Notes: a model not told the origin generated them from the letters alone. Counted from the first letter of the stretch, positions 321 to 63,686 are shown. The stretch: DNA of 64,000 bases from Candidatus Eremiobacteraceae bacterium (GCA_035710745.1 DASTCX010000016.1:124001-188000), one strand, 5' to 3'. Made by a program: numbers and translations.

Positions 321-351
321 CCACGGCGGTCGAGCTAAAGCTCGACCGCTA
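321..351 (-). repeat. Intergenic palindromic repeat, copy 1
   Basis: GCGGTCGAGCT and its inverse AGCTCGACCGC flank a 2-base loop. The asymmetric flanks (GTAGC on one side, GCCGTGG on the other) show it lies in the minus orientation. It sits between the acyl-CoA dehydrogenase stop and sucC. Stem variant GAGCT/AGCTC of the family found throughout this window. Confidence 0.85.
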
Positions 352-371
352 CAAAATAATCGGGAGTGTAA

Positions 372-1535
372 ATGAGACTGCTCGAGTATCAAGGCAAAGA
401 ATTGTTCGCCCGAGCGGGCATCCCGGTGCCCAAGGGCAAGGTCGCGTCAACGGTCGAGGAAGCGGTTGCGATCATGCACGCGAACCCGGCGCCGTCCGCC
501 GTCAAAGCGCAAGTGCTCATCGGCGGCCGCGGCAAAGCCGGCGGCATCAAGTTCTGCAGCGACGAGCGCGACGTCGTCGAGCCCACGAAGGCGATCCTCG
601 GCATGCGAATCGCGAACGCCCAAGACCCGGTCGGCGAGATCGTCAAGCGCGTCTGGATCGAGCAGCGCATGGACATCGCCAAGGAGTTGTACCTCTCGAT
701 AACCGTCGATCGCGCATCGAAGCGCCCTATCATCATGGCGTCTGCGATGGGCGGCATGGACGTCGAAGAGGTCGCTGAGAAGCATCCCGAGGCGATCGCG
801 AAGTATCGCGTCGATCCGTCCGTCGGCTATTGGCCGTTCATCGGCCGCCGGCTCGCCCGCGAAGCGGACCTGCCCAAAGAAGTGAGCAACGAGTTCGCGT
901 CGATCGTCGGCAAGCTCTACGCGCTCTTCTTCGACGTCGGGGCATTGCTCGTCGAGATCAATCCGCTCGCCGTGACCAAAGACGGCAAGCTCGTCGCGTC
1001 GGATTCGAAAGTCGACCTCGACGACAATGCGATGTTCCGCCACAAGGAGCTCGCCGCATGGAAGCCCGAGGGCGAACGCGATCCGCTCAAGGAGCGCGCG
1101 ATCGCGGCCGGCCTTGGTGAGAACAACTACGTCCAGCTCGACGGCGACGTCGGCATCATCGGCAACGGCGCCGGCCTCGTCATGGGCACGCTCGACGCCG
1201 TCAAAGCCGCCGGCGGTCAGCCTGCGAACTTCCTCGATATCGGCGGGGGCGCTAAGGCAGACGTCATGCGCGAAGCGGTCAACATCGTCACGTCGAACCC
1301 GAAAGTCCGCTCGCTCTTCATCAATATATTCGGCGGCATCACGCGCGGCGACGAAGTCGCGAAAGGACTCGTCGAGGCGTTGGCAGGCGGCGGCTGGGAT
1401 CGCCGCAAGCTCGTCATACGATTGACGGGCACGAACGAAAAAGAAGGCCGTGAGGTGCTCCGCCAAAACAACATCGAAGCGGTCGAGACCATGAACGAAG
1501 GGGCGAAGCACGCGGTCGCCCTCGCACGAGCATAG
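372..1535 (+). CDS. sucC: Succinyl-CoA ligase (ADP-forming) beta subunit
   Basis: Beta subunit of the TCA-cycle enzyme that interconverts succinyl-CoA and succinate with substrate-level phosphorylation; it works as a complex with SucD. The 387 aa match the family length. An N-terminal ATP-grasp domain begins MRLLEYQGKELF and carries the nucleotide-binding loop VLIGGRGKAGG at about 48-58. The C-terminal ligase domain has LDIGGGA and the NIFGGITR motif used in CoA-ligase beta subunits. The start is an ATG preceded by CGGGAG. sucD follows after 10 bases, and the SD of sucD overlaps the sucC stop, so the two are co-translated. No other TCA-cycle gene is adjacent. Nucleotide specificity (ADP or GDP) is not decided by what can be read. 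Confidence 0.97.
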   Translation: MRLLEYQGKELFARAGIPVPKGKVASTVEEAVAIMHANPAPSAVKAQVLIGGRGKAGGIKFCSDERDVVEPTKAILGMRIANAQDPVGEIVKRVWIEQRMDIAKELYLSITVDRASKRPIIMASAMGGMDVEEVAEKHPEAIAKYRVDPSVGYWPFIGRRLAREADLPKEVSNEFASIVGKLYALFFDVGALLVEINPLAVTKDGKLVASDSKVDLDDNAMFRHKELAAWKPEGERDPLKERAIAAGLGENNYVQLDGDVGIIGNGAGLVMGTLDAVKAAGGQPANFLDIGGGAKADVMREAVNIVTSNPKVRSLFINIFGGITRGDEVAKGLVEALAGGGWDRRKLVIRLTGTNEKEGREVLRQNNIEAVETMNEGAKHAVALARA

Positions 1536-1545
1536 GAGCAAAATC

Positions 1546-2430
1546 TTGTCCATCTTCCTCAACGAACGATCGGAAGTCATCGTCCAAGGCATCACCGGAC
1601 GAGAAGGCCTCTATCACGCCAACCGCATGCGCGCGTACGGCACGAAACTCGTCGGCGGCGTCACGCCGGGCAAGGGCGGCCAGACGGTCGAAGGATTCGC
1701 GGTGTTCGACGGGGTCCGCGAAGCGCGCGCGAAGACCGGCGCGAACGTCAGCGTCATCTTCGTGCCTCCGCCGTTCGCCGCAGATGCGATCCTCGAAGCC
1801 GCCGACGCCGGCGTCGAACTCGTCATCTGCATCACCGAAGGCATCCCCGTCCACGACATGCTCAAAGTGATGGCGTCCGTTCCGTCGACGACGCGCGTCA
1901 TCGGTGCGAACTGCCCGGGCGTCGTCACGCCGGGAGTCGCGCTCGCCGGCATCATGCCCGGACACGTGTTCAGCGACGGAAACGTCGGTTTGATCTCGCG
2001 CAGCGGCACCCTGACGTACGAGATCGTCGATCAGCTGACGCGGTCGGGAATCGGCCAAAGCACGTGCGTCGGAATCGGCGGCGATCCGATCATCGGCACG
2101 GTCTTCGTCGATTGCCTGGAGGCATTCGAACAAGACGGCAAGACCGAAGCGGTGGTCCTCGTCGGTGAGATCGGCGGTACCGATGAAGAAGACGCCGCGC
2201 AGCTCGTCGCGGACAAAAAGTTCACAAAACCGCTCGTGACGTTCATAGGCGGCCGTTCGGCTCCAAAAGGGAAGCGGATGGGCCATGCGGGCGCGATCAT
2301 CACGGGCAGCATGGGCACGCCGGAATCGAAAGTCGCCGCGTTCCAGAAGATCGGCGCGCCCGTCGCCGACAGTCCGGCCGATATCCCCGGACTCGTCGCC
2401 CGGGTCTTGAAACAGCCAGCCAAAGCCTGA
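1546..2430 (+). CDS. sucD: Succinyl-CoA ligase alpha subunit
   Basis: Alpha subunit of succinyl-CoA synthetase, carrying the CoA-binding Rossmann domain and the phosphohistidine. The protein is 294 aa, of normal length. It opens with the CoA-binding GITGREG motif (about 15-21), contains the conserved NCPGVVTPG segment (about 122-130), and has the active-site histidine in RMGHAGAI (H247). The start is TTG at 1546, chosen because AGGAG at 1534-1538 overlaps the sucC stop codon and no ATG fits. A strong hairpin follows 20 bases downstream and probably ends the sucCD transcript. Confidence 0.97.
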   Translation: MSIFLNERSEVIVQGITGREGLYHANRMRAYGTKLVGGVTPGKGGQTVEGFAVFDGVREARAKTGANVSVIFVPPPFAADAILEAADAGVELVICITEGIPVHDMLKVMASVPSTTRVIGANCPGVVTPGVALAGIMPGHVFSDGNVGLISRSGTLTYEIVDQLTRSGIGQSTCVGIGGDPIIGTVFVDCLEAFEQDGKTEAVVLVGEIGGTDEEDAAQLVADKKFTKPLVTFIGGRSAPKGKRMGHAGAIITGSMGTPESKVAAFQKIGAPVADSPADIPGLVARVLKQPAKA

Positions 2431-2450
2431 CCGAAGACCGCATTAGCCCT

Positions 2451-2476: not shown

Positions 2477-2594
2477 GGCATCAATGCGTCATTTCTAGGC
2501 CTCGGATCAAGCCATACAAAGGCACGGCAGAACGTCCAACCGCCGTTCCGTCCGAGAGGACAAATGTGAGATTGCCATGAAAATGCCAGCCTGG

Positions 2595-2623
2595 AAATGC
2601 GCATCCGGGCGGATGCTGCATTT
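2595..2623 (+). other. Hairpin in the leader of the first TonB-dependent receptor
   Basis: GCATCC-GGGC-GGATGC forms a 6-bp stem that AAATGC and GCATTT can extend on either side with small internal loops. It lies about 75 bases before the chosen start codon. No known riboswitch motif, including the cobalamin type, was recognised. It may be a transcript-leader structure or chance. Confidence 0.3.
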
Positions 2624-2696
2624 TCTACGGTTGTCTCCGGACGGCACACGAGCCGCGGAGAAAATCGTCGCCATTCGCTTCAAGGAGAGGTTTGGA

Positions 2697-5600
2697 ATGC
2701 CAAAATTTGGGTTCCTAAGGATCGCTCTCTTGGCGATGCTAGTCGTGCTTTTCCAGGGAACATGGGCACTGGCAGGCACAACCGGCGGCCTCACGGGCTA
2801 CGTCGTCCAACCGGACGGCACAGCGCTCGCGGATGCCAAGGTCACGGCAGCATCACCTTCTGAGTCGGCCACAGCGACCACTGACGCGAGCGGACACTTC
2901 TCGTTCGTCTCGCTCACCCCGGATACGTATACGGTCACGGCCAGCAAAGACGGCTATGACCCGACGAGCCAACCCGGCGTCACGGTCCTCGCGGACTCGA
3001 CGGCGGTCGCTCGCATCACGCTTCACCCGACCGTCAAGGTCCTCGGCCACGTGACGAGCACGGCGCAAGCCGCACTCGTGAAGGCCGGCACGACGGCTGA
3101 CGTCTACTCGATCAATTCGACGACGTCGGCGAAGTCGGCGACCCTCGGCGGCGGCGGCAGCCTCGGCCAGGCGTACGGCGCGATCGCGTCGCAGCCCGGC
3201 GTCGTGGTACCGCCGGGTCAGAGCGGCTGGTTCCAGACGATCCACATCCGCGGCGGCGACTTCGACCAAGTCGGGTACGAATTCGACGGCGTGCCGGTGT
3301 TGCGGTCGTACGACAACTATCCGACGACCTCGGCCTCGACGCTCGGCCAGCAAGAGCTGCAGATCTACACGGGCGGCGCGCCTGCGAACTCCGAGTCGCA
3401 GGGTCTTGCCGGCTACATCAACCAGGTCATCAAGAGCGGCACGTATCCTGGGTTCGCGAACCTGAACCTCGGGATCGGCTCGCCGACGATGTACAACAGC
3501 ATGCAGTTCGAAGCCGGCGGTGCGACGCCGAACCGTAACTTCTCGTACTACGTGGCGTTCGGCAACAGCTCGCAGAACTTCCGCTGGTTCGACAACAACA
3601 ACGGCGCCGGCATCCAGCAGAAGTTCGGCGCAGCGTTCGCGCAATTGCCCTGCCCAGTGTTACCTGGCACGCCGCAATCGGGCGGTGGCAATCCGAATCT
3701 CGCGAACTGCTATGCGACAGGCATTGGCCCCGGCGGGTATGCACTTGGCCCGCCCGTGGACAGCTTCAACGTCGCGCAGGGGTGGGATCATGAGTCGATC
3801 ATGAACCTTCACTTCGGCATCCCGCATCACAACGATTCGGGTAAAGACGACATCCAGTTGCTCTACGACAACACGTACCTGCACAACACATATTACAGCT
3901 CGGCGAGCGACTGGACGGTCCCGGGCAACCCGTTATTCACCAGCTTAAACGGCGGTGGATCGTTCGGGTATCTGAGCGGTCCGGGCATCGGCTGGCAATA
4001 CCTTGGTAAGGTAGGCCAAGCACTGCCTACGAGCATGACTGCGGCCCAGCTCCAGGCGATGGTCAACCCGGTGTTCTTCGCGTACAACCCGGCGAGCCAA
4101 AAGCCGTTTAGCGGCGGCCCGTTCGGGGCGTTCGCTCCGATCCCGACCGACCAGCGCGACGGTACTGCGAACCCCAACTCGATCATCAAGCTGCAGTACC
4201 AGCACAACATCGGTACGGATCAGTACATCCGCGTCTACGGCTTCCAGAACTGGTCGGTGTGGCCGCAGACGTGTCCGAACACAGGTTGGACCAACTACTT
4301 CGGCTACTGTCCGCTCAACTATTACGTCGACACGTATACGAGCGGCGTGAGCGGCCAGTACGCCAACCAGATCAACGACAAGAACCTCATCAACCTCGAA
4401 GTGTCCGATTTCTGGGCTCAGGACTACCGCGCCAACGACACGACGATGCTCAACGACCTCGGTAACTACTTCGGTGGACCCGATCGGCCGTTCGCGTACC
4501 TCGTGAACTCAAAGGCGCCGACATCGGGCATCTGCTACGACGGGTCCGGCAACCCGCAGAGCTGCTACTCCGGTCTCGAGGGAACGATCGGACTCAACGC
4601 AGCGGGCACCGGAGCTGCGAACCTCACGTTGCCGGCGACATGCGGCACGGGTCCGTGCGAGTGGTTCGTCGCTGAGAACGGCCGACGAGGCGGCGGCAAC
4701 TTCGCCAAGCCGAACTTCGGCTGGGTGTCGTTGCAAGATCAATGGAAGCCGTCGCAGCAGTTGCTGTTCAACATCGGTGCGCGGTATACACGCTACTTCT
4801 ACCAGTTGTCCGATACCGGCGGTCCGGCTCGCGACTTCTGGTTCAATGCGTGGAACGCGTCGCACTGCGTGAATCCCGGCGGCGGTCAAGTGCCGTTCAA
4901 TAACGGCCTCGGCGCCTGCCCGGCCGGCACGATTCGGGCGACGATGACGAACCTTCCGAACGACACCGAGACCTTCACGGATCTCGAGCCTCGTGTCGGC
5001 GGGACGTACACGGTCAATCCGGACAACGTCATCCGGTTCAACTACGGCCGCTACAACCAGCCGCCGAACACGGCCTACGAGCAGTACAACCTGCTCCAAC
5101 AGGACCTCGCGTCCTACGACGCGACCAACTTCTGGCCGATCGGTTTCACGACGACGACGCACCACATCACGCCTCCGACAGCGAACAACTACGACGCTTC
5201 GTGGGAGCATCGGTTCGCGGGCAGCGACGTGAGCTTCAAGCTGACGCCGTTCCTGCGCCAAACCCACGGTCAGATCCAGAACTTCTTCTTGGATCAGAAG
5301 ACCGGCTTCGTCTCAGGCCTCAACGCCGGTAATCAGACGTCGGACGGTGTCGAGTTCGAGCTGAGCAAGGGCGACTTCAACCAGAACGGGCTTTCGGGTC
5401 TGTTCTCGTTCACATACACGCACAGCTTCATCCACTACAGCACGCTCGCAAACGGCGGCAGCGTGCTCAGCACCGTCAACGTCGCGATCCAGCAGTACAA
5501 CTCGTTCACGAGCGCGTGCGCGGGAGCGTTACCGTCGAATAACCCGAACTCGCTTTGCGGCACGTTCGGCGGCGCGAACGCTATCGCCACCGAAGGCAGC

Positions 5601-6320
5601 GGAATCGCGAACCCGTACTTCAACGCACCGGCGCAGCCGCTCTTCGATCTGACCGGGAACTACGTGCCCTTCAGCACGATTCCGGGCCTTATCGAGACGG
5701 CGTCGGGCTCGTACGAGACCCCGACCGCAGCTGCGTTGATCCTCAACTTCAAGCACGACAAGTGGGCGATCACGCCGCAGCTGCAGTTCTTCGGCGGCGG
5801 TTATTACGGCTCGCCCTTGAACGCTTACGGAGTCGATCCGTCGGGCTGCGGTTCAGCACTCGGTGGGTCGGTCGCCGGTGATCCGCGGTATCCCTACGGC
5901 GGCAGCGGCACTCCGTACGATGCCCTTACGTGCGGCGGAACAATTGCGGTTCCGAACCCGTACACGCACAAGTTCGACAACTTGGGCGCGTTCCGGGGCC
6001 CGAACCAGATCCTGTTGCACGCGCAGATCTCGTACGAAGTCTCGCAGCGCGTGACGATGTCGCTCAACCTGGCGAACATCGTCAACCAGTGCTCGGGCGG
6101 AACGTCTGAGCCTTGGACGCAAGGCGCTAGCAACAAGGTCTGCGGCTACACGCTGCCGGGCTACAGCGCACCGCTGAAGTATGGCGCATTCGCATCGCAA
6201 AGTGCGGGCGGCATCTTCAACCCTGGCTCGTCGCCGCAGTTCCAGTTGCAGTTCCCGTACCAGCAAAACCCGACGGTACAACCGTTCAACGCGTACCTCA
6301 ACGTCCAGATCAAGCTCTGA
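2697..6320 (+). CDS. TonB-dependent receptor with carboxypeptidase-regulatory-like N-terminal domain (receptor 1)
   Basis: Outer-membrane transporter of the TonB-dependent family, 1207 aa. A signal peptide (cleavage predicted after WALA, residue 26) is followed by a carboxypeptidase-regulatory-like beta-sandwich (about 28-110, with GHFSFVSLTPDTYTVTASKDG), a plug (about 120-260, with HIRGGDFDQVGYEFDGVPV), and a long beta-barrel rich in aromatic/Asn strands. The start is the ATG at 2697 after AAGGAGAGG; an upstream in-frame start at 2577 would place 40 charged residues before the signal peptide. The last residues are VQIKL, ending in Leu rather than the usual aromatic. A strong terminator follows. 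It is paralogous to the receptors at 8226 and 33449. The substrate (large peptide, carbohydrate or chelate) is unknown, and no TonB/ExbBD gene is in the window. Confidence 0.92.
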   Translation: MPKFGFLRIALLAMLVVLFQGTWALAGTTGGLTGYVVQPDGTALADAKVTAASPSESATATTDASGHFSFVSLTPDTYTVTASKDGYDPTSQPGVTVLADSTAVARITLHPTVKVLGHVTSTAQAALVKAGTTADVYSINSTTSAKSATLGGGGSLGQAYGAIASQPGVVVPPGQSGWFQTIHIRGGDFDQVGYEFDGVPVLRSYDNYPTTSASTLGQQELQIYTGGAPANSESQGLAGYINQVIKSGTYPGFANLNLGIGSPTMYNSMQFEAGGATPNRNFSYYVAFGNSSQNFRWFDNNNGAGIQQKFGAAFAQLPCPVLPGTPQSGGGNPNLANCYATGIGPGGYALGPPVDSFNVAQGWDHESIMNLHFGIPHHNDSGKDDIQLLYDNTYLHNTYYSSASDWTVPGNPLFTSLNGGGSFGYLSGPGIGWQYLGKVGQALPTSMTAAQLQAMVNPVFFAYNPASQKPFSGGPFGAFAPIPTDQRDGTANPNSIIKLQYQHNIGTDQYIRVYGFQNWSVWPQTCPNTGWTNYFGYCPLNYYVDTYTSGVSGQYANQINDKNLINLEVSDFWAQDYRANDTTMLNDLGNYFGGPDRPFAYLVNSKAPTSGICYDGSGNPQSCYSGLEGTIGLNAAGTGAANLTLPATCGTGPCEWFVAENGRRGGGNFAKPNFGWVSLQDQWKPSQQLLFNIGARYTRYFYQLSDTGGPARDFWFNAWNASHCVNPGGGQVPFNNGLGACPAGTIRATMTNLPNDTETFTDLEPRVGGTYTVNPDNVIRFNYGRYNQPPNTAYEQYNLLQQDLASYDATNFWPIGFTTTTHHITPPTANNYDASWEHRFAGSDVSFKLTPFLRQTHGQIQNFFLDQKTGFVSGLNAGNQTSDGVEFELSKGDFNQNGLSGLFSFTYTHSFIHYSTLANGGSVLSTVNVAIQQYNSFTSACAGALPSNNPNSLCGTFGGANAIATEGSGIANPYFNAPAQPLFDLTGNYVPFSTIPGLIETASGSYETPTAAALILNFKHDKWAITPQLQFFGGGYYGSPLNAYGVDPSGCGSALGGSVAGDPRYPYGGSGTPYDALTCGGTIAVPNPYTHKFDNLGAFRGPNQILLHAQISYEVSQRVTMSLNLANIVNQCSGGTSEPWTQGASNKVCGYTLPGYSAPLKYGAFASQSAGGIFNPGSSPQFQLQFPYQQNPTVQPFNAYLNVQIKL

Positions 6321-6384: not shown

Positions 6385-6390
6385 ATGGAG

Positions 6391-6420
6391 CCGTCGACTT
6401 TTACGGTCGACCGCCGCGGC
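6391..6420 (+). repeat. Intergenic palindromic repeat, degenerate copy
   Basis: CCGTCGAC-TTTTAC-GGTCGACCGCCGCGGC: the stem is the GACC variant with a mismatch in the left arm, and the right flank CCGCCGCGG is intact. It abuts the stop codon of the minus-strand gene at 6420, at a convergent junction. Confidence 0.7.
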
Positions 6421-8225: not shown

Positions 8226-11200
8226 ATGTCGATCAAGGGGCTACTCCGTCTCGCGCTTTTGGCACTTCTCGTCGTCGCCTTCCAGGGAACTTGGGCACTG
8301 GCTGGCACGACCGGAAGCATCCAGGGCATCGTGACGGACTCGGATGGCCATCCGATCGCCGGGGCGGCCGTGACGGCGATATCGCCGTCGCAGTCCGCTC
8401 ATAGCGTAACGGACAGCAAGGGCTTTTTCGCCCTGCTCAATCTCTCGCCCGACACGTATGCCGTCACGGCATCGAAGGACGGCTACGATGCGTCGACCCT
8501 GAACGGCCTCACCGTTCAGGCCGACCAAGCGACGCGCGGCGACTTGTCGTTGCGCAGCTCGGCCAAACTGCTCGGTCATGTGACCGCCACCGCGCCGACG
8601 TCGGTCGTCAATAAGACCGTCACCGGCGATCTCTACGCGGTCAACTCGCAAGCGATCAACTCGTATCAAGGAAGCTCGGGCGGCGCTGAGACGCTCTACA
8701 GCCAGAACGGCGTCGTCGGCTCGCTGCCGGGCGTCGTCCGCACGGTCGGATCGGGCGGCGGCTACTTCGGCCAAGGCACGCTGAGTCTGCGCGGCGGCGC
8801 ATACGACCAGATCGGCTTCGAGCTCGACGGCGTGCCGCTCAACCGCGGCTTCGACTTCTACAACAGCACGTCGTTCCTCACGAACGGTCTCGCGAGCCTC
8901 GAGGTCTACACCGGCGGCGAACCGGCGGACGCAGGCCGCGCGATGTCCGGCTACATCAATCAGGTGATGCAGCGCGGCCGTTATCCCGGCGGCGCGGACT
9001 TCACCGTCGTGGCCGGATCACCGACGTTCAATCATACGCTGCAGACCGACGTCTTCGGCGCGACGCCGAACGGCGGCTTCAGCTACTACGTTTCGACGCT
9101 CGCCACGAATGCCGGCTACGATTTCAACAACCGGCAGGATAACAACAACCTGACGCTCTCGGTCCCGGCGAACGATCCCGGTTGCGCCGATTTCGCGCAG
9201 TTGCAGGCCGGTGACGGCGCACAACAGGCGAACTGGCTCAATTGCGGCCGCGCGAACAACCTGCTTGCGGGCATCTCGCAAGGCACGTACGGTTCGAACA
9301 TCTACGGCGCGCAGCGCGACACGGTCGCGAATCTGCACTGGCTGTTCGGCCACAACGGCCTGCAGGACGACCTCCAGGCGCTTTATGTCACAGGCAGCAC
9401 CTTCACGCCGAGCTATGACCAGTACTCGGGTCCGGGCGTCGATCCGGCGTTGTACTGCGAAGAGAGCGCGTGCGCGCTAGGTCCGAACAACCAGATCCTC
9501 TGGCCGACCGGCTCGATCTATCGCGGAGCCGTGAACCAGCCGGATACCGGTCCGTCGGAAACGCTTACGTGGCCGACGGCAAACGGATCTCAGGGTGGGA
9601 TTCCTGCCGGATTCACCGACAACCAGATCACGCAGTACAGCATCGAGAAGCTCGGCTTCACGCGCTCGCTGAGCTCGACGTCGTACGTGCGCCTCTACGG
9701 CTATCAGCTCTACTCGTTCTGGACGCTCAACCAGCCGACGGAAGCGATCGTGGGCGGCACGTTCTACCAGCTCCACGATAACGCGACCGGCATCACGCTG
9801 AACTACCAGAATCAGCTGAGCTCGACGAACTCGATCAGCTTCGATGCTGACTACACCAAAGACCTGACGCTGCGCTACAACTACGGCAACTACTTCCATC
9901 AGCAGCGTACGGCCGGCGAACCCGGTGGTGGCGTCGTCTGCGGCGATCTCGCCGTCTTCTCATCGCTCGGCGCGTGCGGCGGCGCGAACACCAACGTCGC
10001 GATCATCCGCGGTCCGTACGGCTACTGGTCGTCGACGACGCCGATCACATCGGACGCGGTCGTCGCCGACACGTGGAAGCCGAGCGATAAGTGGTCGCTC
10101 GACATCGGCGCGCGCTACGACCAATTCAAGTTCGCGCTCATGCCGCTGCAGATCACGGGTCCGAACGGCCTTGCGGAACAGGCGCAGAACCAATGGGGCA
10201 TGTGCCTCCACGGCTACCATTACGGAGCCGGCGAACCGTGCAACGGCTACCTGACAGGCTACGTGGCCGCAGGCACCGGAGGACTGCCGCAAGACCTTCC
10301 CGGCGCGGCGAACTGGCAGGACGTCTCGGGCGACCTGACGTTCAACGAGTTCAGCCCGCGCTTCGGCGCGACGTACACGCTGTCGTCGAACGACGTGCTC
10401 CGGTTCTCGGTCGGACGCTACGTCCAGCCGCCGAACTCGGCGTTCGAAGAGTACCGCGCGGCGCCGTTCTGGGGTTCCGGCGATACGATCTCGATCCTCA
10501 ACCGCTACTACGACGGACTCGGCTTCCTCGCGGTGCACAACGTGCAGCCTGAGGACAGTACGAACTACGACCTCTCGTTCGAACACGATTTCTCGAACGG
10601 GCTGTCCGCGAAGATCACGCCGTTCTACCGCGACACGCGCGGTCAGATCCTCAACCTGCCCGTCAACCCGCAACAGCCGAGCTTCGTGACCGGGTACAAC
10701 TTCGGCGTCGCGCACATCAGCGGCGTCGAGTTCCTGGCGCGCAAGAACCGGCTTACCGAGAACGGGCTCTCGGCGACGTTCTCTGCGACGTACACGCAGT
10801 CGAAGATCCGATTCACGAAGTCGGCCGCCGGCGTGTCGTTCATCGACCTCATGAACAACAACATCAAGGCCTACAACGCGGACTACGGCACGAAGTACGC
10901 GCTGCTCGATCCGAACGGGTACTACTACCCGTCGTATACACAGTCGCCGCTTGCGACTTCGCCGTCGTACACGGTGCCGTTCGTGTTCACGCTGACGCTC
11001 GACGAGCGGACGCACGGCTTCGACATCACGCCGACGTTCAATTACCAATCCGGTAATCCGTACGGCGACCCCGCGCTCTTCCCGGATCCGCACTGCAACC
11101 CGAATCTCGCGGTGAACCCATCCTCGTGCGTTCCGGTCGGAGTGGGTCAGGTCTACGATGGTGGAGCCGGACCGAATCCATACACGCACACCTTCGACGC

Positions 11201-11525
11201 TCCCGGTTCGCTCAAAGGCCCGTCGTGGCTGGCGATGAACCTGAGCGTCTCGCACGACCTCGGGACCAACTCGAAGGTGAGCTTCCTCGTGACGAACCTC
11301 TTCACGTCTATCCATAACCATGGATATCCGTGGGAGCTGCCGACCGGCGACGGCGTGCTGTCGTACGGCGACAACATCTTCTACAACCTGATCCCGCTCG
11401 GCTATAACGGCCTCACGGGGTTCCCGGATCGCACCCAGTACTTCGGCGACAACTACTACCCGTACTCGCCGTCGGCCGTCGCATCGGCACGCGAGTACGT
11501 GTTCAGCATCTCGACGAAGATCTAA
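8226..11525 (+). CDS. TonB-dependent receptor with carboxypeptidase-regulatory-like domain (receptor 2)
   Basis: A 1099-aa outer-membrane receptor. The ATG at 8226 follows GGAGG. The signal peptide ends in TWALA and closely matches that of receptor 1. It is followed by the regulatory-like beta-sandwich (ALLNLSPDTYAVTASKDGYD), then a plug with LSLRGGAYDQIGFELDGVPL and the SGYINQV segment shared with receptor 1, then the barrel. The C-terminus is FSISTKI, again ending Lys-Ile. Receptors 1 and 2 are clear paralogues, but their barrel loops differ, suggesting different ligands. Cysteines occur in loop regions (for example CEESACA), so loop disulfides are possible. An intrinsic terminator follows. 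Confidence 0.92.
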   Translation: MSIKGLLRLALLALLVVAFQGTWALAGTTGSIQGIVTDSDGHPIAGAAVTAISPSQSAHSVTDSKGFFALLNLSPDTYAVTASKDGYDASTLNGLTVQADQATRGDLSLRSSAKLLGHVTATAPTSVVNKTVTGDLYAVNSQAINSYQGSSGGAETLYSQNGVVGSLPGVVRTVGSGGGYFGQGTLSLRGGAYDQIGFELDGVPLNRGFDFYNSTSFLTNGLASLEVYTGGEPADAGRAMSGYINQVMQRGRYPGGADFTVVAGSPTFNHTLQTDVFGATPNGGFSYYVSTLATNAGYDFNNRQDNNNLTLSVPANDPGCADFAQLQAGDGAQQANWLNCGRANNLLAGISQGTYGSNIYGAQRDTVANLHWLFGHNGLQDDLQALYVTGSTFTPSYDQYSGPGVDPALYCEESACALGPNNQILWPTGSIYRGAVNQPDTGPSETLTWPTANGSQGGIPAGFTDNQITQYSIEKLGFTRSLSSTSYVRLYGYQLYSFWTLNQPTEAIVGGTFYQLHDNATGITLNYQNQLSSTNSISFDADYTKDLTLRYNYGNYFHQQRTAGEPGGGVVCGDLAVFSSLGACGGANTNVAIIRGPYGYWSSTTPITSDAVVADTWKPSDKWSLDIGARYDQFKFALMPLQITGPNGLAEQAQNQWGMCLHGYHYGAGEPCNGYLTGYVAAGTGGLPQDLPGAANWQDVSGDLTFNEFSPRFGATYTLSSNDVLRFSVGRYVQPPNSAFEEYRAAPFWGSGDTISILNRYYDGLGFLAVHNVQPEDSTNYDLSFEHDFSNGLSAKITPFYRDTRGQILNLPVNPQQPSFVTGYNFGVAHISGVEFLARKNRLTENGLSATFSATYTQSKIRFTKSAAGVSFIDLMNNNIKAYNADYGTKYALLDPNGYYYPSYTQSPLATSPSYTVPFVFTLTLDERTHGFDITPTFNYQSGNPYGDPALFPDPHCNPNLAVNPSSCVPVGVGQVYDGGAGPNPYTHTFDAPGSLKGPSWLAMNLSVSHDLGTNSKVSFLVTNLFTSIHNHGYPWELPTGDGVLSYGDNIFYNLIPLGYNGLTGFPDRTQYFGDNYYPYSPSAVASAREYVFSISTKI

Positions 11526-12937: not shown

Positions 12938-12972
12938 ACCGCGGCGGTCGACCATAAAGGTCGACCGCTCCC
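12938..12972 (-). repeat. Intergenic palindromic repeat
   Basis: Minus orientation, stem variant GGTCGACC with ATAAA between the arms, complete GGGAGC and CCGCGG flanks. Located between the converging lipoprotein and acyl-CoA dehydrogenase genes. Confidence 0.88.
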
Positions 12973-19970: not shown

Positions 19971-20104
19971 GGGAGCGGTCGAGATTTATCTCGACCGCCG
20001 CGGCCTTTCCTAAACAAAAAGGGAGCGGTCGAGATTTATCTCGACCGCCGCGGCCTTTCCTAAACAAAAAGGGAGCGGTCGAGATTTATCTCGACCGCCA
20101 CGGT
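19971..20104 (+). repeat. Three tandem palindromic repeats, exact 50-bp units
   Basis: Units start at 19971, 20021 and 20071. The first two are identical 50-mers: GGGAGCGGTCGAGATTTATC, then the complementary arm TCGACCGC, CGCGG, and a CTTTCCTAAACAAAAA tail. The third breaks off after the CACGG flank. A half copy in inverse orientation (GGTCGACCGCCCC) lies at about 20120-20135. There are no spacers between units, so this is not a CRISPR array. Located between two co-directional genes. Confidence 0.92.
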
Positions 20105-20153: not shown

Positions 20154-22091
20154 ATGGCGCAACCCGTTTGGTCGCCCACGGCCGAGCATATCGAAAACGC
20201 GAACATCACCGCCTTCATGCGATCCGAGAAGATCGGCTCGCTTGAAGCGCTCTGGGATTTCGCTCGCGCCGACATCGCCGGTTTCTACGATCGGCTGCTG
20301 CGCTTCATCGGGCTGTCGTGGTTCGAGCCGTACGAGCAGGTCCTCGACCTGACGCGCGGTGCGCCATTCGCGCGGTGGTTCTCGAGCGGCCGATACAACG
20401 CGTCGCACAACTGCTTGGACAAATACGTCGACGCAGGCCGCGGCGATAGCGAAGCGCTCGTCTGGGAAGGCGAAGACGGCGCGATCCGCTCGTACACGTT
20501 CGCCCAGCTGCTCGCCGAAGTGTGCCGGCTGGCGGGCGCGTTGCGCTCGCTCGGTGTCGAGTCGGGCGACGCGGTCGGCATCTACATGCCGCTGCTTCCC
20601 GAGACGGCGATCGCGCTGCTCGCGATCGGTCGCATCGGCGCGATCGCCGTGCCTGCGTTTTCGGGCTACGGCGCGCCCGCGCTCGCGACACGCCTCGCGG
20701 ATTCCGGCGCGAAGGTGCTCATCACCGCGGACGGCGTGCCGCGCCGCGGCAAGATCGTCGACATGAAGTCGAACGCGGATGCGGCGCTTCGCGATGCGCC
20801 GAGCGTGCGCAACGTCGTCGTCGTGCGCAGGACGCGAGCCGACGTGCCGTGGACGCGAGGCCGCGACATCGATTGGGAAGACGCGCTGCGCGATCAGCCG
20901 GGAGAACTCGACGCGGTGCGAACGGCCGCTAACGACCCGTATCTCTTGCTCTACACGTCAGGGTCTACCGGAAAGCCGAAAGGCGCGGTCCACGGCCACG
21001 CCGGCTTTCCCGTCAAGGTGCAGGTCGACCAATTCCTGTGTTTCGACGTCAAACCGGCCGACCGCATGCTCTGGTTCACCGACATGGGATGGATGATGGG
21101 GCCGTTCCTCGTGCTTGGTGCACTCGGTCTCGGCGCGACAATCGTGCTCTACGAGGGGACGCCCGACTATCCGGCGCCCGACCGGCTGTGGAACGTCGTC
21201 GCGCGTCATCGCGCGACGCACCTCGGCATCGCGCCGACGGCCATCCGCAGCCTCATGGTGCATGGCGACGACCAGCCGGCGCGCCACGATCTGTCGTCGC
21301 TGCGCGTCCTCGGATCGAGCGGCGAGGCGTGGAATCCAGAGCCCTACAAATGGTTCTCGCATCACGTCGGGCGCGACCGCTGCCCGATCATCAACTATTC
21401 GGGCGGTACGGAAGTGAGCGGCGGCATCCTCGGCTGTTTTCCGATCCGGCCGCTGGTCCCGTGCGCGTTCCACGGACCTGTTCCCGGCATGGATGCCGAC
21501 GTCGTCGAGGCGGACGGCCGCTCGGTGCGCGGTGAAGTCGGCGAGCTCGTCATGCGCCAAACGTGGCCGGGCATGACGCAAGGGTTTTGGCATGACGACG
21601 AGCGCTATCTCTCGACGTACTGGTCGCGCTTCCCCGACGTCTGGGTGCACGGCGATTGGGCGAGCGTCGACGCTGACGGCTATTGGTACATCCACGGGCG
21701 TTCGGACGACACGATCAACGTCGCGGGCAAGCGGGTTGGGCCGGCCGAGTACGAGAGCGCGCTCGTCGCGCATCGCTCGGTGAAGGAAGCCGCCGCGATC
21801 GCGGTGCCGGACGACCTCAAAGGCGAATCCGTCGTGTGTCTCGTCATCCTGCGCCCTGGCGAGAAAGAGAGCGAAGACCTCCGCACGGAGCTCGGCCGAA
21901 CGGTCGCGCAGTCGCTCGGCAAGGCGCTCGCGCCGAAAGCGATCCGCTTCGTCGACGATCTGCCGCGGACGCGTAACGCGAAGATGATGCGTCGAGTCGC
22001 GCGAGCGCGCTACCTCAGACGCTCGGAGCTCGGCGATCTGTCTGCCCTCGAGAATCCGGCGTCGCTCGAGGCCATCGACGCAGCGCGATGA
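20154..22091 (+). CDS. Acetyl-CoA synthetase-like acyl-CoA ligase
   Basis: AMP-forming ligase that activates a short carboxylic acid to its CoA thioester, 645 aa, similar in length to acetyl-CoA synthetase. It has an acetyl-CoA-synthetase-type N-terminal cap, then the phosphate-binding loop YTSGSTGKPKG from about residue 267, the adenine-binding segment with NYSGGTEVSGG, and the hinge GRSDDTINVAGKR. The C-terminal catalytic lysine is K610 in NAKMMRR; the usual context is SGK, so Asn-Ala here is a deviation at the acetylation-controlled site. The stop overlaps the metH start (ATGA), an unusual pairing. The substrate could be acetate, propionate or acetoacetate; sequence alone does not decide. 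Confidence 0.9.
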   Translation: MAQPVWSPTAEHIENANITAFMRSEKIGSLEALWDFARADIAGFYDRLLRFIGLSWFEPYEQVLDLTRGAPFARWFSSGRYNASHNCLDKYVDAGRGDSEALVWEGEDGAIRSYTFAQLLAEVCRLAGALRSLGVESGDAVGIYMPLLPETAIALLAIGRIGAIAVPAFSGYGAPALATRLADSGAKVLITADGVPRRGKIVDMKSNADAALRDAPSVRNVVVVRRTRADVPWTRGRDIDWEDALRDQPGELDAVRTAANDPYLLLYTSGSTGKPKGAVHGHAGFPVKVQVDQFLCFDVKPADRMLWFTDMGWMMGPFLVLGALGLGATIVLYEGTPDYPAPDRLWNVVARHRATHLGIAPTAIRSLMVHGDDQPARHDLSSLRVLGSSGEAWNPEPYKWFSHHVGRDRCPIINYSGGTEVSGGILGCFPIRPLVPCAFHGPVPGMDADVVEADGRSVRGEVGELVMRQTWPGMTQGFWHDDERYLSTYWSRFPDVWVHGDWASVDADGYWYIHGRSDDTINVAGKRVGPAEYESALVAHRSVKEAAAIAVPDDLKGESVVCLVILRPGEKESEDLRTELGRTVAQSLGKALAPKAIRFVDDLPRTRNAKMMRRVARARYLRRSELGDLSALENPASLEAIDAAR

Positions 22092-25000
22092 CTCCGCGTA
22101 ATCCTTTCCTGACCGCTCTAGACGAGCGCGTGCTCGTGTTCGACGGTTCGATGGGTGCGACGCTTTCCGCGCTCGGGCTCACCGCTGCCGACTACGGCGG
22201 CAAGGAAGGCTGCATCGATCACCTATCGCTGACGAAGCCCGAAACGATCCTCGCGCTCCATCGAGGCTTCTTGGACGTCGGCGCGGATGCGCTCGAGACG
22301 AATACGTTTCAGGCGTCGCGGCTCAAGCTTGCGGAGTTCGGTCTTGGCGATCAGGTGCGCGAGCATAACATCGCCGCTGCTCGCCTCGCGCGTCGCGCCG
22401 TCGAGGAGTTCGAACACGACAATGTAGTAGGCCGAGCGAAGCTCGGCGATCTCTTCGTCGTTGGTTCGTTGGGCCCGACCGGGATGCTGCCATCCGCAGA
22501 CGACCCGACATTATCGACCATCAGTTATCACGAGCTGTTCGACGTCTATCGCGAGCAGGCGGACGCGTTGCTCGAAGGCGGCGTCGATGCGTTCATCATC
22601 GAGACGCAGCAGGATATCTTGGAGACACGCGCTGCGGTGAACGCGTGCGCTGCTGCTGCCGCGGGTCACACCGCCCGCACCGGCGCGCCGCGCGCCGCAG
22701 TCATGGCGTCCGTATCGCTCGACACGCGAGGACGCATGTTGCTCGGGACCGATATCGCCGCAGTATGCGCGATCCTCGAAGCGCTGCCGTGCGACGTCGT
22801 CGGCCTCAACTGCAGCACCGGGCCGGAATACATGCGCGACGCGATCCGGTACCTGTGCGAGCACTCGTCGAAATTCGTCTCGTGCATCCCGAACGCCGGC
22901 ATTCCGCGCAACGAGGGCGGTCGCGCCGTCTTCCCGCTCGGGCCCGAGCCGATGCGCGATGAACTCGCTTCGTTCGTCAAAGATTTCGGCGTCAATATCG
23001 TCGGCGGATGCTGCGGTACCGGACCCGAACACATCCGGCTGCTCGTCGAAGCGGTGCACGCGTTGAAGCCGCGGACGCCGCGCGCTCATTCCGGCCGCGA
23101 CGAAGAGGTCGCGAGCGCGATGACCGCGCTGGCGCTGGCGCAAGAACCGCGGCCGATGATCGTCGGCGAACGTCTCAATACGCAAGGGAGCCGCAAGGTG
23201 AAGCGGCTTCTGCTCGACGGCGACTTCGACGGTCTCGTCGCCGTCGCGCGCGATCAAGTCGCAGGCGGAGCTCATTGTCTCGACCTCTGCACCGCCCTCA
23301 CCGAGCGTGAGGGCGAAGACGAGACGATGGCGACGCTCGTCAAGCGTCTCGAGCTCTCGGTCGAAGCGCCGCTCATCATCGACAGCACGGAAGCGAAGGT
23401 CATCAAGCGTGCGCTCGAGACGAATCCGGGCCGGGCCGTCATCAACTCGGTGAACCTCGAGAGCGGCCGCAAACGGATCGACGACGTGCTTCCGCTCGCG
23501 CTCGAGCACGGCGCCGCAGTCATCGCGCTGACAATCGAGCAGTCGATCGGCATGGCCAAAACGGTCGATGCGAAGGTCAAGGTCGCCCGTCAGATCGAGG
23601 CGATCTGCTGCGGCGAGTACGGCTTGCCGCGCGGCCGGCTAGTCTTCGACGTGCTGACGTTCACCCTCGCGACCGGCGAGGCCGAGTTCATCGACGCCGG
23701 CGTCAATACTATTGAAGGGATCCGCGCCGTGAAATCGGCGCTGCCTGGCGTGCTCACGGTGCTTGGCGTGAGCAATATCTCGTTCGGCTTGAACGCGGCG
23801 GCCCGCGCCGTCGTCAACAGCGTCTTCCTCTACCATTGCGTCGAGGCGGGTCTCGATCTCGCGATCGTCAACCCGAAAGACATCACGCCGTACGCGCTCA
23901 TCATGCCCGATGAGCGGTCGCTCGCCGAAGACCTCATCTTCAATCGACGGCCCGATGCGCTGGCGCGCGTCATAACGCGGTACGAGGGCGTCCGCGCCGG
24001 ATCGAGCGACGGCGCGGCAGCAGCGGAGGAAGACGACTCTGCGTTGCCGGTCAACGAACGGATCCACCGGCGGATACTCCATCGACGCAAGGACGGTATC
24101 GAAGCGTTGCTCGATGAGGCGCTCAAGATGCAGACGCCGGTCGAACTGCTCAACGGATGCCTGCTCGGTGCGATGAAAGATGTCGGCGACAAATTCGGCG
24201 CGGGCGAGCTCATCTTGCCGTTCGTGCTCCAGTCCGCCGAGGTGATGAAGAAGGCCGTCGCCTATCTCGAGCGCTTCCTCGAGAAGGACGATGCGCGGAC
24301 GAAGGGCGTCGTCGTGCTCGCCACCGTCTTCGGCGACGTCCACGACATCGGGAAGAACCTCGTCCACACGATCCTCGCGAACAACGGCTACACCGTGCAC
24401 GATCTCGGCAAGCAAGTGCCGCTCCATGCGATCATCGAGAAGGCGACCGAGGTGAACGCCGACGCGATCGGCCTTTCCGCCCTGCTCGTCTCGACGTCGA
24501 AGCAGATGCCGCTATGCGTCCAGGAGCTGCATCGCGAAGGCTTGCGCTATCCCGTCATCTGCGGCGGTGCGGCGATCAATCGCGCCTACGTGTCGCGCAT
24601 CGGGTTCGTCGAGGAAGACCGGTACTACGATCCGGGTGTCTTCTACGCGAAAGATGCCTTCGAAGGGCTCGCGATCATGGATCGCCTCCGCGAACCGGGC
24701 GAGCGCGAGCGCCTGCGATCCGAGACGGAATCGGATGCCCGAGCGGCCGTGGCTAAACGGGCGGCGCGGTCGGCGTCGCGTGTCGGAGACGGTGAGGTCG
24801 CACGGCGTTCGGGCATCCGTCGGGACGGCGCGATTCCCAAGCCGCCGTTTTGGGGCGCGCGCGAGATGCGCGATATCCGTCTCGCGGACGTCTTCCGATG
24901 CATGGATCTGCGTTCACTCTATCGGTTGCAGTGGGGCGCGAAGAGCGCGAAGGGCGAACAGTGGCGCCGTTTGCTTCGCGAGGAGTTTCGTCCGCGGCTT

Positions 25001-25623: not shown

Positions 25624-25760
25624 GGGAGCGGTCGAGCTTTAGCTCGACCGGTGGCGCCTTGAAATGTTGCGGTCGAGGCGGTCGACCGTAAAGGTCGACC
25701 GCTCCACTTCAAACGTTTCAGGAAATACCGCGGCGGTCGAGATAAATCTCGACCGCTCCC
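25624..25760. repeat. Cluster of three palindromic repeats in mixed orientation
   Basis: 25624-25651 is plus-oriented (stem GAGCT/AGCTC); 25676-25706 is minus-oriented (GACC/GGTC); 25728-25760 is minus-oriented (GAGAT/ATCTC). All three known stem variants occur within 137 bases at the convergent metH / acyl-CoA dehydrogenase junction, where they could form a bidirectional transcript end. Confidence 0.9.
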
Positions 25761-29315: not shown

Positions 29316-29350
29316 GCCGCGGCGGTCGAGCTAAAGCTCGACCGCTACAT
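29316..29350 (-). repeat. Intergenic palindromic repeat inside the chaperone operon
   Basis: Minus orientation, stem GAGCT/AGCTC, flanks CCGCGG and GTAGC. It fills most of the 55-base gap between grpE and dnaJ, so a transcript of the operon would carry it as a hairpin in sense orientation. Confidence 0.88.
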
Positions 29351-31824: not shown

Positions 31825-31853
31825 GGGAGCGGTCGAGATTTATCTCGACCGGC
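31825..31853 (+). repeat. Intergenic palindromic repeat between htrA and dnaK
   Basis: GGGAGC flank, stem GGTCGAGAT/ATCTCGACC, right flank shortened to GGCC. It is plus-oriented, so antisense to the chaperone operon. It could partially terminate or stabilise a htrA-dnaK transcript. Confidence 0.85.
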
Positions 31854-31859
31854 CTTGAG

Positions 31860-33372: not shown

Positions 33373-33388
33373 TGTGACATCCGTCACA
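33373..33388. promoter_or_regulatory. CRP-type palindrome upstream of receptor 3
   Basis: TGTGA-CATCCG-TCACA is an exact match to the half-site core and spacing recognised by CRP/CRP-family regulators, 60 bases before the receptor 3 start codon. No CRP-family gene is in the window, so the binding protein is inferred only from the site. Confidence 0.55.
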
Positions 33389-33448
33389 TGTCGCAGTTGG
33401 CATTGGGGCGTCCCAGGCGATGACCCGGGGGCCCGAATTGGAGGAGGC

Positions 33449-48488: not shown

Positions 48489-48553
48489 GGGAGCGGTCGA
48501 GATTTATCTCAGAAAAAAGGGAGCGGTCGAGATTTATCTCGACCGCCGCGGTC
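48489..48553 (+). repeat. One partial and one complete palindromic repeat in tandem
   Basis: 48489-48510 has only the flank and stem to ATCTC; 48519-48553 is complete (stem GAGAT/ATCTC, flank GCCGCGG). Both are preceded by runs of A (AGGAAAAA, AGAAAAAA). Located at a convergent junction between the permease and the minus-strand exported protein. Confidence 0.9.
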
Positions 48554-51584: not shown

Positions 51585-51607
51585 GGGAGCGGTCGACCGC
51601 CGCGGCC
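51585..51607 (+). repeat. Palindromic repeat with the hairpin centre deleted
   Basis: GGGAGCGGTCGACCGCCGCGG: both flanks are kept but the inner arm-loop-arm (about 14 bases) is missing between two TCGA copies, as a slippage or recombination product at the hairpin would leave. Located between ftsK and mqnE, 6 bases past the ftsK stop. Confidence 0.8.
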
Positions 51608-54700: not shown

Positions 54701-54835
54701 GGGAGCGGTCGAGATTTATCTCGACCGCCGCGGTCCTTCAAAACAATTCAAGGGGAGCGGTCGAGATTTATCTCGACCGCCGCGGTTTCTCCAATGCAAG
54801 GCCGTCTCCGGTCGAGCTGAAGCTCGACCGCTCCC
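54701..54835. repeat. Three palindromic repeats, two plus and one minus orientation
   Basis: 54701-54736 and 54753-54786 are plus-oriented with stem GAGAT/ATCTC; 54809-54835 is minus-oriented with stem GAGCT/AGCTC and GA in the loop. They fill the junction between mqnC and the converging unknown gene. Confidence 0.9.
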
Positions 54836-61957: not shown

Positions 61958-61967
61958 CGGCCCCGGC

Positions 61968-62786
61968 GTGAAGCGTTTTCTGATCGCCGCGGCGATAGTC
62001 GCGGTCGTTCTCGGCCTGGTCGTCGGCCTGCGGCGCTGGATACACCACGCGCAACTCGAGCTCGTACCCGTCCTCATCGTACCGGGCGAAGATGCGCACA
62101 CCATCGTCGATCCGCCGCCTGGAGCGATCGCGACGCGCATGATGCTCGACCTGCGCGAGATTGTCTCGCGGCCGTCGCGTCCGCGGCTCGCCGTGCTGAC
62201 GTTCGATGACGGGCCGTATCCGGTCGAGACGCCGGCGCTGGCCGACGAGCTCGCCCGGCTCCATCTCCCCGCCGAATTTTTCCTCATCGGCCGCGACGCT
62301 CTGCAACAGCCGGCGATCGCGCGCCGACTCGGCAGCGGCGGCAACGAGACCGGCAACCACAGCATGACGCACCCCGAGATGTCGTCGCTCGCGTACGACG
62401 CGCAGCGCGCCGAGATCGAGCAAGGTGCGGTCGCGGTGAGCGCTACGACCGGACAGCGCGTCGTCTATTTCAGGCCGCCGCACGGCAACTACGACGAAAA
62501 CACCATCAAGGCGGCGCTCGACCTGCGGGAGACGGTCGCGCTCTGGAACGACGATCCAGGCGATTGGCGCACGCTGTCGCCGGATGCGATAGCCAAGCTC
62601 GCGGTCGAGCAGGCCCGTGCGCCAGTCGTCATCTTGCTCCACGACGGGAAAGACTCGACCATCGGTGCGCTGCCCGCGATCGTCGGCGCATTCCGCCGCG
62701 CCGGTTATCGATTCGTGACGTTGAGCGAACTGCAAAGAGAGGTGCCCGTCGACGAGATCAACGATCCGATAAGGGTGACGCTGTGA
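61968..62786 (+). CDS. Polysaccharide deacetylase, NodB homology domain
   Basis: 272 aa, GTG start 61968. One N-terminal membrane segment (about 4-21), then the NodB domain: D80/D81 in TFDDGP (catalytic base and metal), H131 and H135 in NHSMTH (metal), RPPHG near 169, and LLHDG toward the end. Probably removes acetyl groups from peptidoglycan or an exopolysaccharide in the periplasm. Pairing with the LCP enzyme suggests joint work on one wall polymer (inference). The next small gene overlaps by four bases (GTGA). Confidence 0.93.
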   Translation: MKRFLIAAAIVAVVLGLVVGLRRWIHHAQLELVPVLIVPGEDAHTIVDPPPGAIATRMMLDLREIVSRPSRPRLAVLTFDDGPYPVETPALADELARLHLPAEFFLIGRDALQQPAIARRLGSGGNETGNHSMTHPEMSSLAYDAQRAEIEQGAVAVSATTGQRVVYFRPPHGNYDENTIKAALDLRETVALWNDDPGDWRTLSPDAIAKLAVEQARAPVVILLHDGKDSTIGALPAIVGAFRRAGYRFVTLSELQREVPVDEINDPIRVTL

Positions 62787-62995
62787 AACGACAGATCATC
62801 AAGACGAAGCCGGTTCGGCCGTATCGCGTCGCGCGCATCATCATAGCGGCGTTCGTCATCGCGATCGTCGCAGCGCTCGCCTTCGAGCTATGGACGAGGG
62901 CGCATGCGGCGCACGCATTAGCGGCCCACGCGGTCTTGCTGCTGCAGGACTCGCCGACAGCGGTCTCAAATCCGCCAAGCCCCGCCGTCCTGTAG
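62783..62995 (+). CDS. Small single-span membrane protein, unknown
   Basis: 70 aa from GTG 62783, whose GTGA overlaps the deacetylase stop, a common coupling signal. Basic N-terminus (KRQIIKTKPVRPYRVAR), one membrane helix (IIIAAFVIAIVAALAFEL), and an Ala/His-rich short tail ending SPAVL. Too small for confident family assignment. Its fixed position between the wall enzyme and hpf suggests a subunit or chaperone of the LCP/deacetylase pair. Confidence 0.7.
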   Translation: MKRQIIKTKPVRPYRVARIIIAAFVIAIVAALAFELWTRAHAAHALAAHAVLLLQDSPTAVSNPPSPAVL

Positions 62996-63010
62996 TTGAA
63001 GGGGATGCCG

Positions 63011-63544
63011 ATGCAGATCTACATCAAGGGTCACGGGCTGCACGTCACCGATGCGCTGCGAACCTACGCCGAAGAGAAGATCGGTCATCTCGACCACTAT
63101 TTCGATCACATCATCGACGCGCATATCACGATGCGTACCGAACGCAGCGCGCAGATCGTCGACGTGACGCTTCACGTCCGTCACTACATCATCAAAGCGG
63201 AAGAACGATCGGGCGATATGTACGCGTCGATCGATCTCGTCCGCGACCGCCTCGAGCAACAGATCCGCAAGTATAAAACGCGCTTGATCGACCGCCACCA
63301 TCGCGGCAACGGTAAGCTCGAGAGCGAGACCGGATCGGCGCCACCGCCCGACACCGACGAATCGCCGCGCATCGTCCGCTCGAAACGCTTCAACGTCAAG
63401 CCGATGAACGCAGAAGATGCGGCGCACCAGATGGAGCTGCTCGATCACAGCTTCTTCGTCTTCGTGAACGAAGAGACCGAACAGCTCAACATCCTCTACC
63501 GTCGGAAGGGCGGCGATCTCGGCATCATCGTGCCGGTGACCTGA
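63011..63544 (+). CDS. hpf: Ribosome hibernation promoting factor, long form
   Basis: 177 aa. Binds the decoding centre and dimerises ribosomes into 100S particles in stationary phase. N-terminal HPF/RaiA domain (MQIYIKGHGLHVTDAL to about 100) and a C-terminal dimerisation domain (IVRSKRFNVKPMNAEDAAHQMELL, given in parts: RSKRFNVKPMNAEDA; HSFFVFVNEETEQLNILYRR) mark the long form. Start ATG 63011 is chosen for GGGG spacing of 6 and the family opening; ATG 63005 and TTG 62996 are alternatives. Followed by three palindromic repeats. Confidence 0.95.
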   Translation: MQIYIKGHGLHVTDALRTYAEEKIGHLDHYFDHIIDAHITMRTERSAQIVDVTLHVRHYIIKAEERSGDMYASIDLVRDRLEQQIRKYKTRLIDRHHRGNGKLESETGSAPPPDTDESPRIVRSKRFNVKPMNAEDAAHQMELLDHSFFVFVNEETEQLNILYRRKGGDLGIIVPVT

Positions 63545-63561
63545 AACGCCAGGAGGGTATG

Positions 63562-63686
63562 TAGCGGTCGAGCTTCAGCTCGACCGCCGCGGCCTATGCA
63601 AGAAGGGGAGCGGTCGAGATTCATCTCGACCGCCGCGGCTTATGCAAGAAGGGGAGCGGTCGAGATTCATCTCGACCGCCGCGGCC
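63562..63686 (+). repeat. Three tandem palindromic repeats after hpf
   Basis: Copies begin at 63562 (stem GAGCT/AGCTC), 63606 and 63652 (stem GAGAT/ATCTC), all with TTCA in the loop region instead of TTTA. The two later copies are joined by the same TATGCAAGAAGGG spacer, giving a period of about 46 bases. All plus-oriented. Confidence 0.92.

What the first reader, a model, noticed from the sequence alone, without database searches (positions are those of the whole stretch)
321..63686. A family of about 20 oriented palindromic repeats with covarying stems
Twenty copies (321, 6391, 12938, 19971, 20021, 20071, 25624, 25676, 25728, 29316, 31825, 48489, 48519, 51585, 54701, 54753, 54809, 63562, 63606, 63652) share AGCGGTCGA-xx-TTTA-yy-TCGACCGC-CGCGG. 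Two adjacent stem positions change in step: GA pairs with TC, GC with GC, CC with GG. The loop varies freely (TTTA, TTCA). Compensated change argues that the hairpin itself is selected. Flank asymmetry gives each copy a direction. This looks like an uncharacterised REP-like or terminator-like element family of the lineage.
Basis: seen in the sequence. Interest (0 to 1): 0.85.

Follow-up and report, generated by a model that had tools for sequence, protein, structure and literature searches.

The report
RAYT-linked REP repeats in Eremiobacterota
The window carries about 20 of the roughly 500 or more copies of a tiny hairpin-shaped mobile DNA (a REP element) in an uncultured Eremiobacterota-type bacterium, and the genome also holds two sister transposase genes, each flanked by its own version of the hairpin, so this is a known kind of genomic parasite in a lineage where I found no earlier report of it.

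Summary
The repeats are real. The window holds 18 full hairpins and 2 damaged ones, against 0.28 expected by chance. They are REP elements (repetitive extragenic palindromes). The genome has 432 exact copies of the main core plus about 100 of a third type, and none in the reversed control. There are three main subfamilies. The loop does not vary freely: it is TT(T/C)A. The genome encodes exactly two REP-associated tyrosine transposases (RAYTs), both outside the window. One is flanked by inverted B copies and the other by inverted A copies; the sister species shows the same pairing, and the tree puts the gene duplication before the species split. Nine of ten other RAYT loci in the family also carry their own inverted palindromes. 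Copies sit just past stop codons: clusters equal 69% of convergent gaps against 7% of divergent ones. They lack a U-run, so they are not intrinsic terminators. Orthologous sites differ between species. Verdict: a new REP/RAYT (REPtron) case of a known kind. Unusual: GGAG feet, abundant head-to-tail pairs, mixed-type tails-facing pairs.

The parts
321..353 (-). REP subfamily B (TGTAG foot, GC:GC stem top, TTTA loop; tail CCGTGG)
6386..6419 (+). REP subfamily C-like, imperfect stem (TGGAG foot, 5-base loop)
12939..12972 (-). REP subfamily C (CC:GG stem top, TTTAT loop, GGGAG foot)
19971..20003 (+). REP subfamily A, first of three direct copies at 50-bp period
20021..20053 (+). REP subfamily A, second direct copy
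20071..20103 (+). REP subfamily A, third direct copy (tail CCACGG)
22424..22447 (+). Unrelated REP family D (GTAGTAG + GCCGAGC-GAA-GCTCGGC), inside the metH-like ORF 22088-25612; no cognate RAYT seen
25624..25656 (+). REP with B stem but GGGAG foot (hybrid), in a tails-facing pair with the next copy
25673..25706 (-). REP subfamily C, tails-facing partner of 25624
25728..25760 (-). REP subfamily A
29317..29349 (-). REP subfamily B
31825..31857 (+). REP subfamily A, tail lost
48489..48510 (+). 3'-truncated REP A (foot, left arm, loop and start of right arm only)
48519..48551 (+). REP subfamily A
51585..51605 (+). Internally deleted REP (GGGAG-CGGTCGACCG-CCGCGG)
54701..54733 (+). REP subfamily A
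54753..54785 (+). REP subfamily A, tails-facing partner of the next copy (A-B heterodimer)
54803..54835 (-). REP with B stem (TTCA loop) and GGGAG foot
63560..63592 (+). REP subfamily B (TTCA loop)
63606..63638 (+). REP subfamily A (TTCA loop)
63652..63684 (+). REP subfamily A (TTCA loop)

Best explanation
These are REP elements: non-autonomous, single-strand mobile hairpins dispersed by two paralogous RAYTs (HUH/Y1 transposases) encoded elsewhere in the same genome. The proposed mechanism is this. The transposase binds the hairpin as folded single-stranded DNA, reading the 5' foot (GTAG or GGAG), the TTYA loop and the top of the stem. The foot guides cleavage at a nearby CT, probably the CT fixed at +8/+9 after the stem (CCGCGGYCT). 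A unit of roughly 50 bases is then moved or re-copied, usually into the space just after a stop codon. Each RAYT paralog spreads its own subfamily: RAYT-B the TGTAG/GC hairpins and RAYT-A the GGGAG/GA hairpins. Shown here: the subfamilies, the cognate flanking in two species, the RAYT family membership, the gene-end placement, the species-to-species turnover and the fixed CT. Inferred: binding, cleavage, which protein moves subfamily C, and any host role.
For: Copy number: 432 exact A/B cores and about 100 C cores in G000, absent from the 12 genomes of the other genera of the family. Exactly two RAYTs, both above the NCBIfam cut-off for 'REP-associated tyrosine transposase' (89 and 95 bits against 80); the only significant solved-structure hit is TnpAREP 4er8 (E 0.00084). 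Both have the DHxH motif, WQ and YVLANP with an upstream Y. RAYT genes are flanked by inverted copies: B type at L009 (plus one A copy), A type at L010, and the same for their orthologs in G001 (L023, L013/L090). The tree gives A (99/98) and B (99/96) paralog clades predating the species split. The foot tracks the stem type, one element per cluster: A 57 GGAG/3 GTAG, B 2/43, Fisher p = 2.4e-23. The loop rule TT(T/C)A matches the T-T-N-A rule measured for Marinomonas TnpAREP (PMC8266576). CT at +8: 69 of 108 A copies, 18 of 34 A singletons, next best offset 6. Of 23 orthologous sites, 8 lack the repeats in G001 and only 4 have the same composition. Other genera have their own RAYT-flanking palindromes, one with 187 genomic copies.
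Against: No direct sign of transposition in progress. No RAYT is flanked by subfamily C or D. Feet are GGAG in A and C rather than the canonical GT(A/G)G. Empty sites are not precise excisions: length differences are about 52 to 76 bases at single copies, and one cluster is replaced by other sequence. The 3'-end placement could also reflect selection rather than targeting.
Confidence: 0.93

Rival explanations
1. Intrinsic (Rho-independent) transcription terminators that look alike because they were copied around.
For: Copies sit a median 17-23 bases past stop codons and clusters equal 69% of convergent gaps.
Against: No U-run after the stem in either orientation (3 and 5 of 257). Copies occur in tandem sets of up to 7. 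Their positions are not conserved between sister species. Both RAYT genes are flanked by them.
Confidence: 0.04
2. RNA-level elements kept for mRNA 3'-end stability or Rho/RNase blocking, with mobility long dead.
For: Hairpins are very stable and 3'-biased; in same-direction gaps single-orientation clusters point with the upstream gene 36 to 14 (p = 0.003).
Against: Orthologous genes often lack the repeat or carry another subfamily in the sister species, so most copies are not conserved as gene parts. The RAYT genes are intact and orthologous. This could be a secondary role, not the origin.
Confidence: 0.15
3. Protein-binding DNA sites (for example for a nucleoid protein, gyrase or a terminus/segregation factor) rather than mobile DNA.
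For: REPs of enterobacteria are known to bind host proteins (established knowledge; also stated in PMC2817692).
Against: It would not explain RAYT genes flanked by cognate subfamilies, tandem ~51-base arrays, truncated copies or species-specific expansion. Both orientations occur (194 against 238).
Confidence: 0.05

Closest known systems
REP/RAYT systems (REPtrons), Bertels group 3 / TnpAY1 subclass 2.5 (Stenotrophomonas, Marinomonas, Pseudomonas, Xanthomonas)
   Same: Short perfect hairpin with a 5' tetranucleotide foot; RAYT of about 150 aa with DHxH, WQ, Y(I/V)xANP; gene flanked by inverted cognate REPs; hundreds of intergenic copies; several RAYTs with several REP types (PMC2817692, PMC8266576, PMC6006769). 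The loop rule equals that of Marinomonas REPMb.
   Different: Host is an uncultured Eremiobacterota-type bacterium. Feet GGGAG and TGGAG in two subfamilies (canonical foot is GT(A/G)G). Longer stem (9-10 bp). YVLANP instead of YI(V/I)ANP. Head-to-tail neighbours outnumber inverted ones.
GTAG-tagged REP superfamily of Di Nocera et al. (PMC3733652)
   Same: Tagged hairpins, downstream-of-gene placement, dimers with the tags outside, heterodimers, REPtrons.
   Different: That survey found head-tail dimers absent or rare in most genomes; here 71 of 106 neighbour pairs are head-tail. Its abstract and the text excerpts I read name no Eremiobacterota/WPS-2.
REPINs of Pseudomonas fluorescens and E. 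coli BIMEs
   Same: Two REPs facing tail to tail at a fixed spacing; E. coli BIMEs also alternate two REP types (y and z).
   Different: Here the tails-facing pairs are almost always of two different subfamilies (23 of 24 typed), whereas P. fluorescens REPINs pair like with like (own knowledge).

Membership tests
REP elements (repetitive extragenic palindromes) | High-copy (over 100) short imperfect or perfect palindrome, 20-40 bp | tested here: met
   432 exact A/B cores in 2.97 Mb; 22-23 base core plus foot
REP elements (repetitive extragenic palindromes) | Mostly extragenic | tested here: met
   14 of 151 clusters overlap called genes (own simple gene caller)
REP elements (repetitive extragenic palindromes) | 5' foot tetranucleotide GT(A/G)G | tested here: inconclusive
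   Met by subfamily B (66 of 77 GTAG); A and C have GGAG (142 of 156); B and A both flank RAYTs
RAYT (REP-associated tyrosine transposase) | HUH motif plus catalytic Tyr, Y1 transposase fold family | tested here: met
   PF01797 above cut-off, NF047646 above cut-off, DHVH/DHIH and RGY(Y/H)ER aligned
RAYT (REP-associated tyrosine transposase) | Gene flanked by two cognate REPs in inverted orientation | tested here: met
   L009, L010, L013, L023
RAYT (REP-associated tyrosine transposase) | Low copy number, not self-mobilising | tested here: met
   One copy of each paralog per genome
RAYT (REP-associated tyrosine transposase) | Cleaves single-stranded REP at CT | not testable with these tools
   Only indirect: a CT is fixed at +8/+9 of the 3' flank
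RAYT group 3 / subclass 2.5 | DH(L/F)H, WQ, YI(V/I)ANP, about 151 aa, short REPs | tested here: inconclusive
   DH(V/I)H, WQ, YVLANP, 153-158 aa; close but not tested by a tree with reference groups
Intrinsic terminators | G+C-rich hairpin followed by a U-run | tested here: not met
   3 and 5 of 257 with 5 or more T in 8 bases
Rfam RNA families | Match to a curated RNA family | tested here: not met
   No match in the window at gathering score

The most novel reading that the evidence does not exclude
A RAYT gene duplication split one REP type into at least two, and the split was written into just two places of the hairpin: the second foot base (T or G) and the loop-closing base pair (C:G or A:T). 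The tails-facing, mixed-type dimers would then mean that the two transposases act together, each cutting one end of a shared composite element.
Probability: 0.2. Interest if true: 0.65.

Novelty: new member of a known kind. Interest (0 to 1): 0.42.

Why it matters
It shows REP/RAYT systems in an uncultured lineage (Eremiobacterota / WPS-2, now Vulcanimicrobiota in NCBI names) where my literature search found no report, with RAYTs in 10 of the 14 genomes of this family and almost every RAYT flanked by palindromes of its own. The pair of RAYT paralogs with two matched hairpin types in two species is a ready natural experiment on how these domesticated transposases recognise their hairpins.

Tried and rejected
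Terminator reading: rejected for lack of a U-run. Rfam: nothing. A third RAYT for subfamily C or D: not found by PF01797 or by protein search down to E 10 in either species. A covariation-proof reading: the pair count exceeds shuffles, but the number of pairs with a both-sided change does not (3 against 1.8, 87/500), so it rests on the two apical pairs, which are subfamily markers. First regular expressions missed the 23-base class and mislabelled types and were replaced. The first RAYT alignment read minus-strand loci in the wrong direction and was redone. The RAYT protein on plasmids: only two weak hits.

Full report
What is there. The window lies in a 2.97 Mb, 41-contig genome (G000, 98% complete). 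The nearest held genome with a name, G001, appears to be Candidatus Eremiobacteria CRAIB_MAG119: its RAYT contig has the same length, 29,810 bases, as JANWLL010000039.1 and the same RAYT locus. NCBI now lists the phylum as Vulcanimicrobiota. The core GGTCGAGNTTNANCTCGACC occurs 432 times in G000 and 269 times in G001, and in none of 59 other relatives. The reversed-pattern control gives 0 in both genomes.

Anatomy. In 1.17 Mb read in detail I found 257 elements in 151 clusters. Three types dominate: A (108) = GGGAG foot, stem top GA:TC, loop TTTA or TTCA; B (77) = TGTAG foot, GC:GC, loop mostly TTTA; C (48) = TGGAG or GGGAG foot, CC:GG, five-base loop TTYA+N. Foot and stem type go together almost without exception (A 57:3, B 2:43, one element per cluster, p = 2.4e-23). 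Lower stem pairs 1-7 are nearly fixed; pairs 8 and 9 carry the differences. In 30 distinct 22-base cores the covariation score is 0.215 against 0.073 in shuffles (0/500), and sliding the partners destroys it, but both-sided changes sit almost only in pairs 8 and 9. The tail CCGCGGY is followed by a CT at +8/+9 in 69 of 108 A copies and in 18 of 34 A singletons; the next best CT offset among those singletons has 6.

Arrangement. Neighbours within 200 bp are direct (71), tails-facing (34) or feet-facing (1), with a start-to-start spacing near 51 bp for both main kinds. Tails-facing pairs are mixed-type in 23 of 24 typed cases (label shuffles: 10.1 same-type expected, 1 seen, 1 of 5000 shuffles as low); direct pairs favour the same type (35 against 21.3). 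Left-truncated stubs abutting a new foot are common, and the window shows one at 48489.

Gene context. With a simple self-trained gene caller (1056 genes, 91% coding), clusters number 62 in convergent gaps (of 90 gaps), 59 in same-direction gaps (of 303), 10 in divergent gaps (of 143), 14 overlapping genes and 6 at contig edges. They begin a median 17-23 bases after the stop codon. Known REPs show the same downstream bias (PMC3733652). There is no U-run, so they are not intrinsic terminators.

The transposases. PF01797 finds exactly two genes, and protein search finds no third. Both pass the NCBIfam REP-associated tyrosine transposase cut-off. RAYT-B (L009, G000:C25:17291-17764) is flanked by inverted B copies, with one extra A copy downstream; RAYT-A (L010, G000:C31, about 20,723-21,181) by inverted A copies with TTCA or TCTA loops. 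In G001 the orthologs keep the same partners (L023: B; L013/L090: A). Paralogs are 61% identical and orthologs 82-83%; the tree places the duplication before the species split. Of the ten RAYT loci from other genera of the family whose flanks I scanned, nine have inverted palindromes with their own sequences, for example GTAG-GGCGGACC-TTTAT-GGTCCGCC in G012 with 187 genomic copies; L014, whose contig starts close to the gene, shows palindromes on one side only. This repeats the RAYT-REP co-evolution described by Nunvar et al. (PMC2817692).

Turnover. At 88.5% nucleotide identity, 23 G000 clusters have an anchored orthologous site in G001: 8 lack the repeat there, 11 carry a different set and 4 the same set. 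One clean case is an insertion of 53 bases with an A repeat in G001 right after a stop codon that is uninterrupted in G000; another is a seven-repeat cluster right after a stop codon in G000 that is absent in G001.

How it most likely works. The closest biochemistry is TnpAREP of Stenotrophomonas and Marinomonas (PMC8266576): strand-specific binding of the folded hairpin, foot-guided choice of a CT cleavage site, and in Marinomonas a TTTA loop in which only the third base may vary. The loop here obeys exactly that rule. In the published guide model the last two foot bases (AG) select CT, so both GTAG and GGAG should still select CT, which is what sits at +8/+9. Steps shown here: sequences, cognate pairing, family membership, turnover. 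Steps inferred: binding, cleavage, strand transfer, division of labour between the two RAYTs, and any host benefit.

Novelty. The kind is known. I found no paper in the held library linking REP/RAYT to this phylum, but subscription journals and supplementary tables were not searched, and RAYT surveys may hold such sequences. The less usual features are the GGAG feet, the dominance of direct pairs (rare elsewhere according to PMC3733652) and the mixed-type rule for tails-facing pairs.

Noticed in passing
window 22424-22447: A copy of an unrelated GTAG-tagged hairpin family (D: GTAGTAG-GCCGAGC-GAA-GCTCGGC; 76 copies in G000, 28 in G001, 0 in 12 other family genomes) lies inside the metH-like gene 22088-25612; no RAYT flanked by it was found.
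   Followed up: partly
G000 subfamily C, e.g. window 12939-12972: Subfamily C (about 100 copies) has no RAYT flanked by it in either species; it may be moved in trans or be a relict of a lost RAYT.
   Followed up: partly
window 51585-51605: Internally deleted REP that kept a shorter perfect palindrome (AGCGGTCGACCGC), as if the loop were lost between the two TCGA words.
   Followed up: no
G000:C3:199005-199340 (L039): Seven REPs in a row directly after a stop codon, absent at the orthologous site in G001.
   Followed up: yes
L021 (G012:C59): A related genus has tandem arrays of its own REP at about 34-bp period beside its RAYT, so head-to-tail arrays may be common in this family.
   Followed up: no
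window 2577-6320, 8226-11525, 33374-36148: Several large CarboxypepD_reg proteins, two of them TonB-dependent receptor-like, close together, unrelated to the repeats.
   Followed up: no
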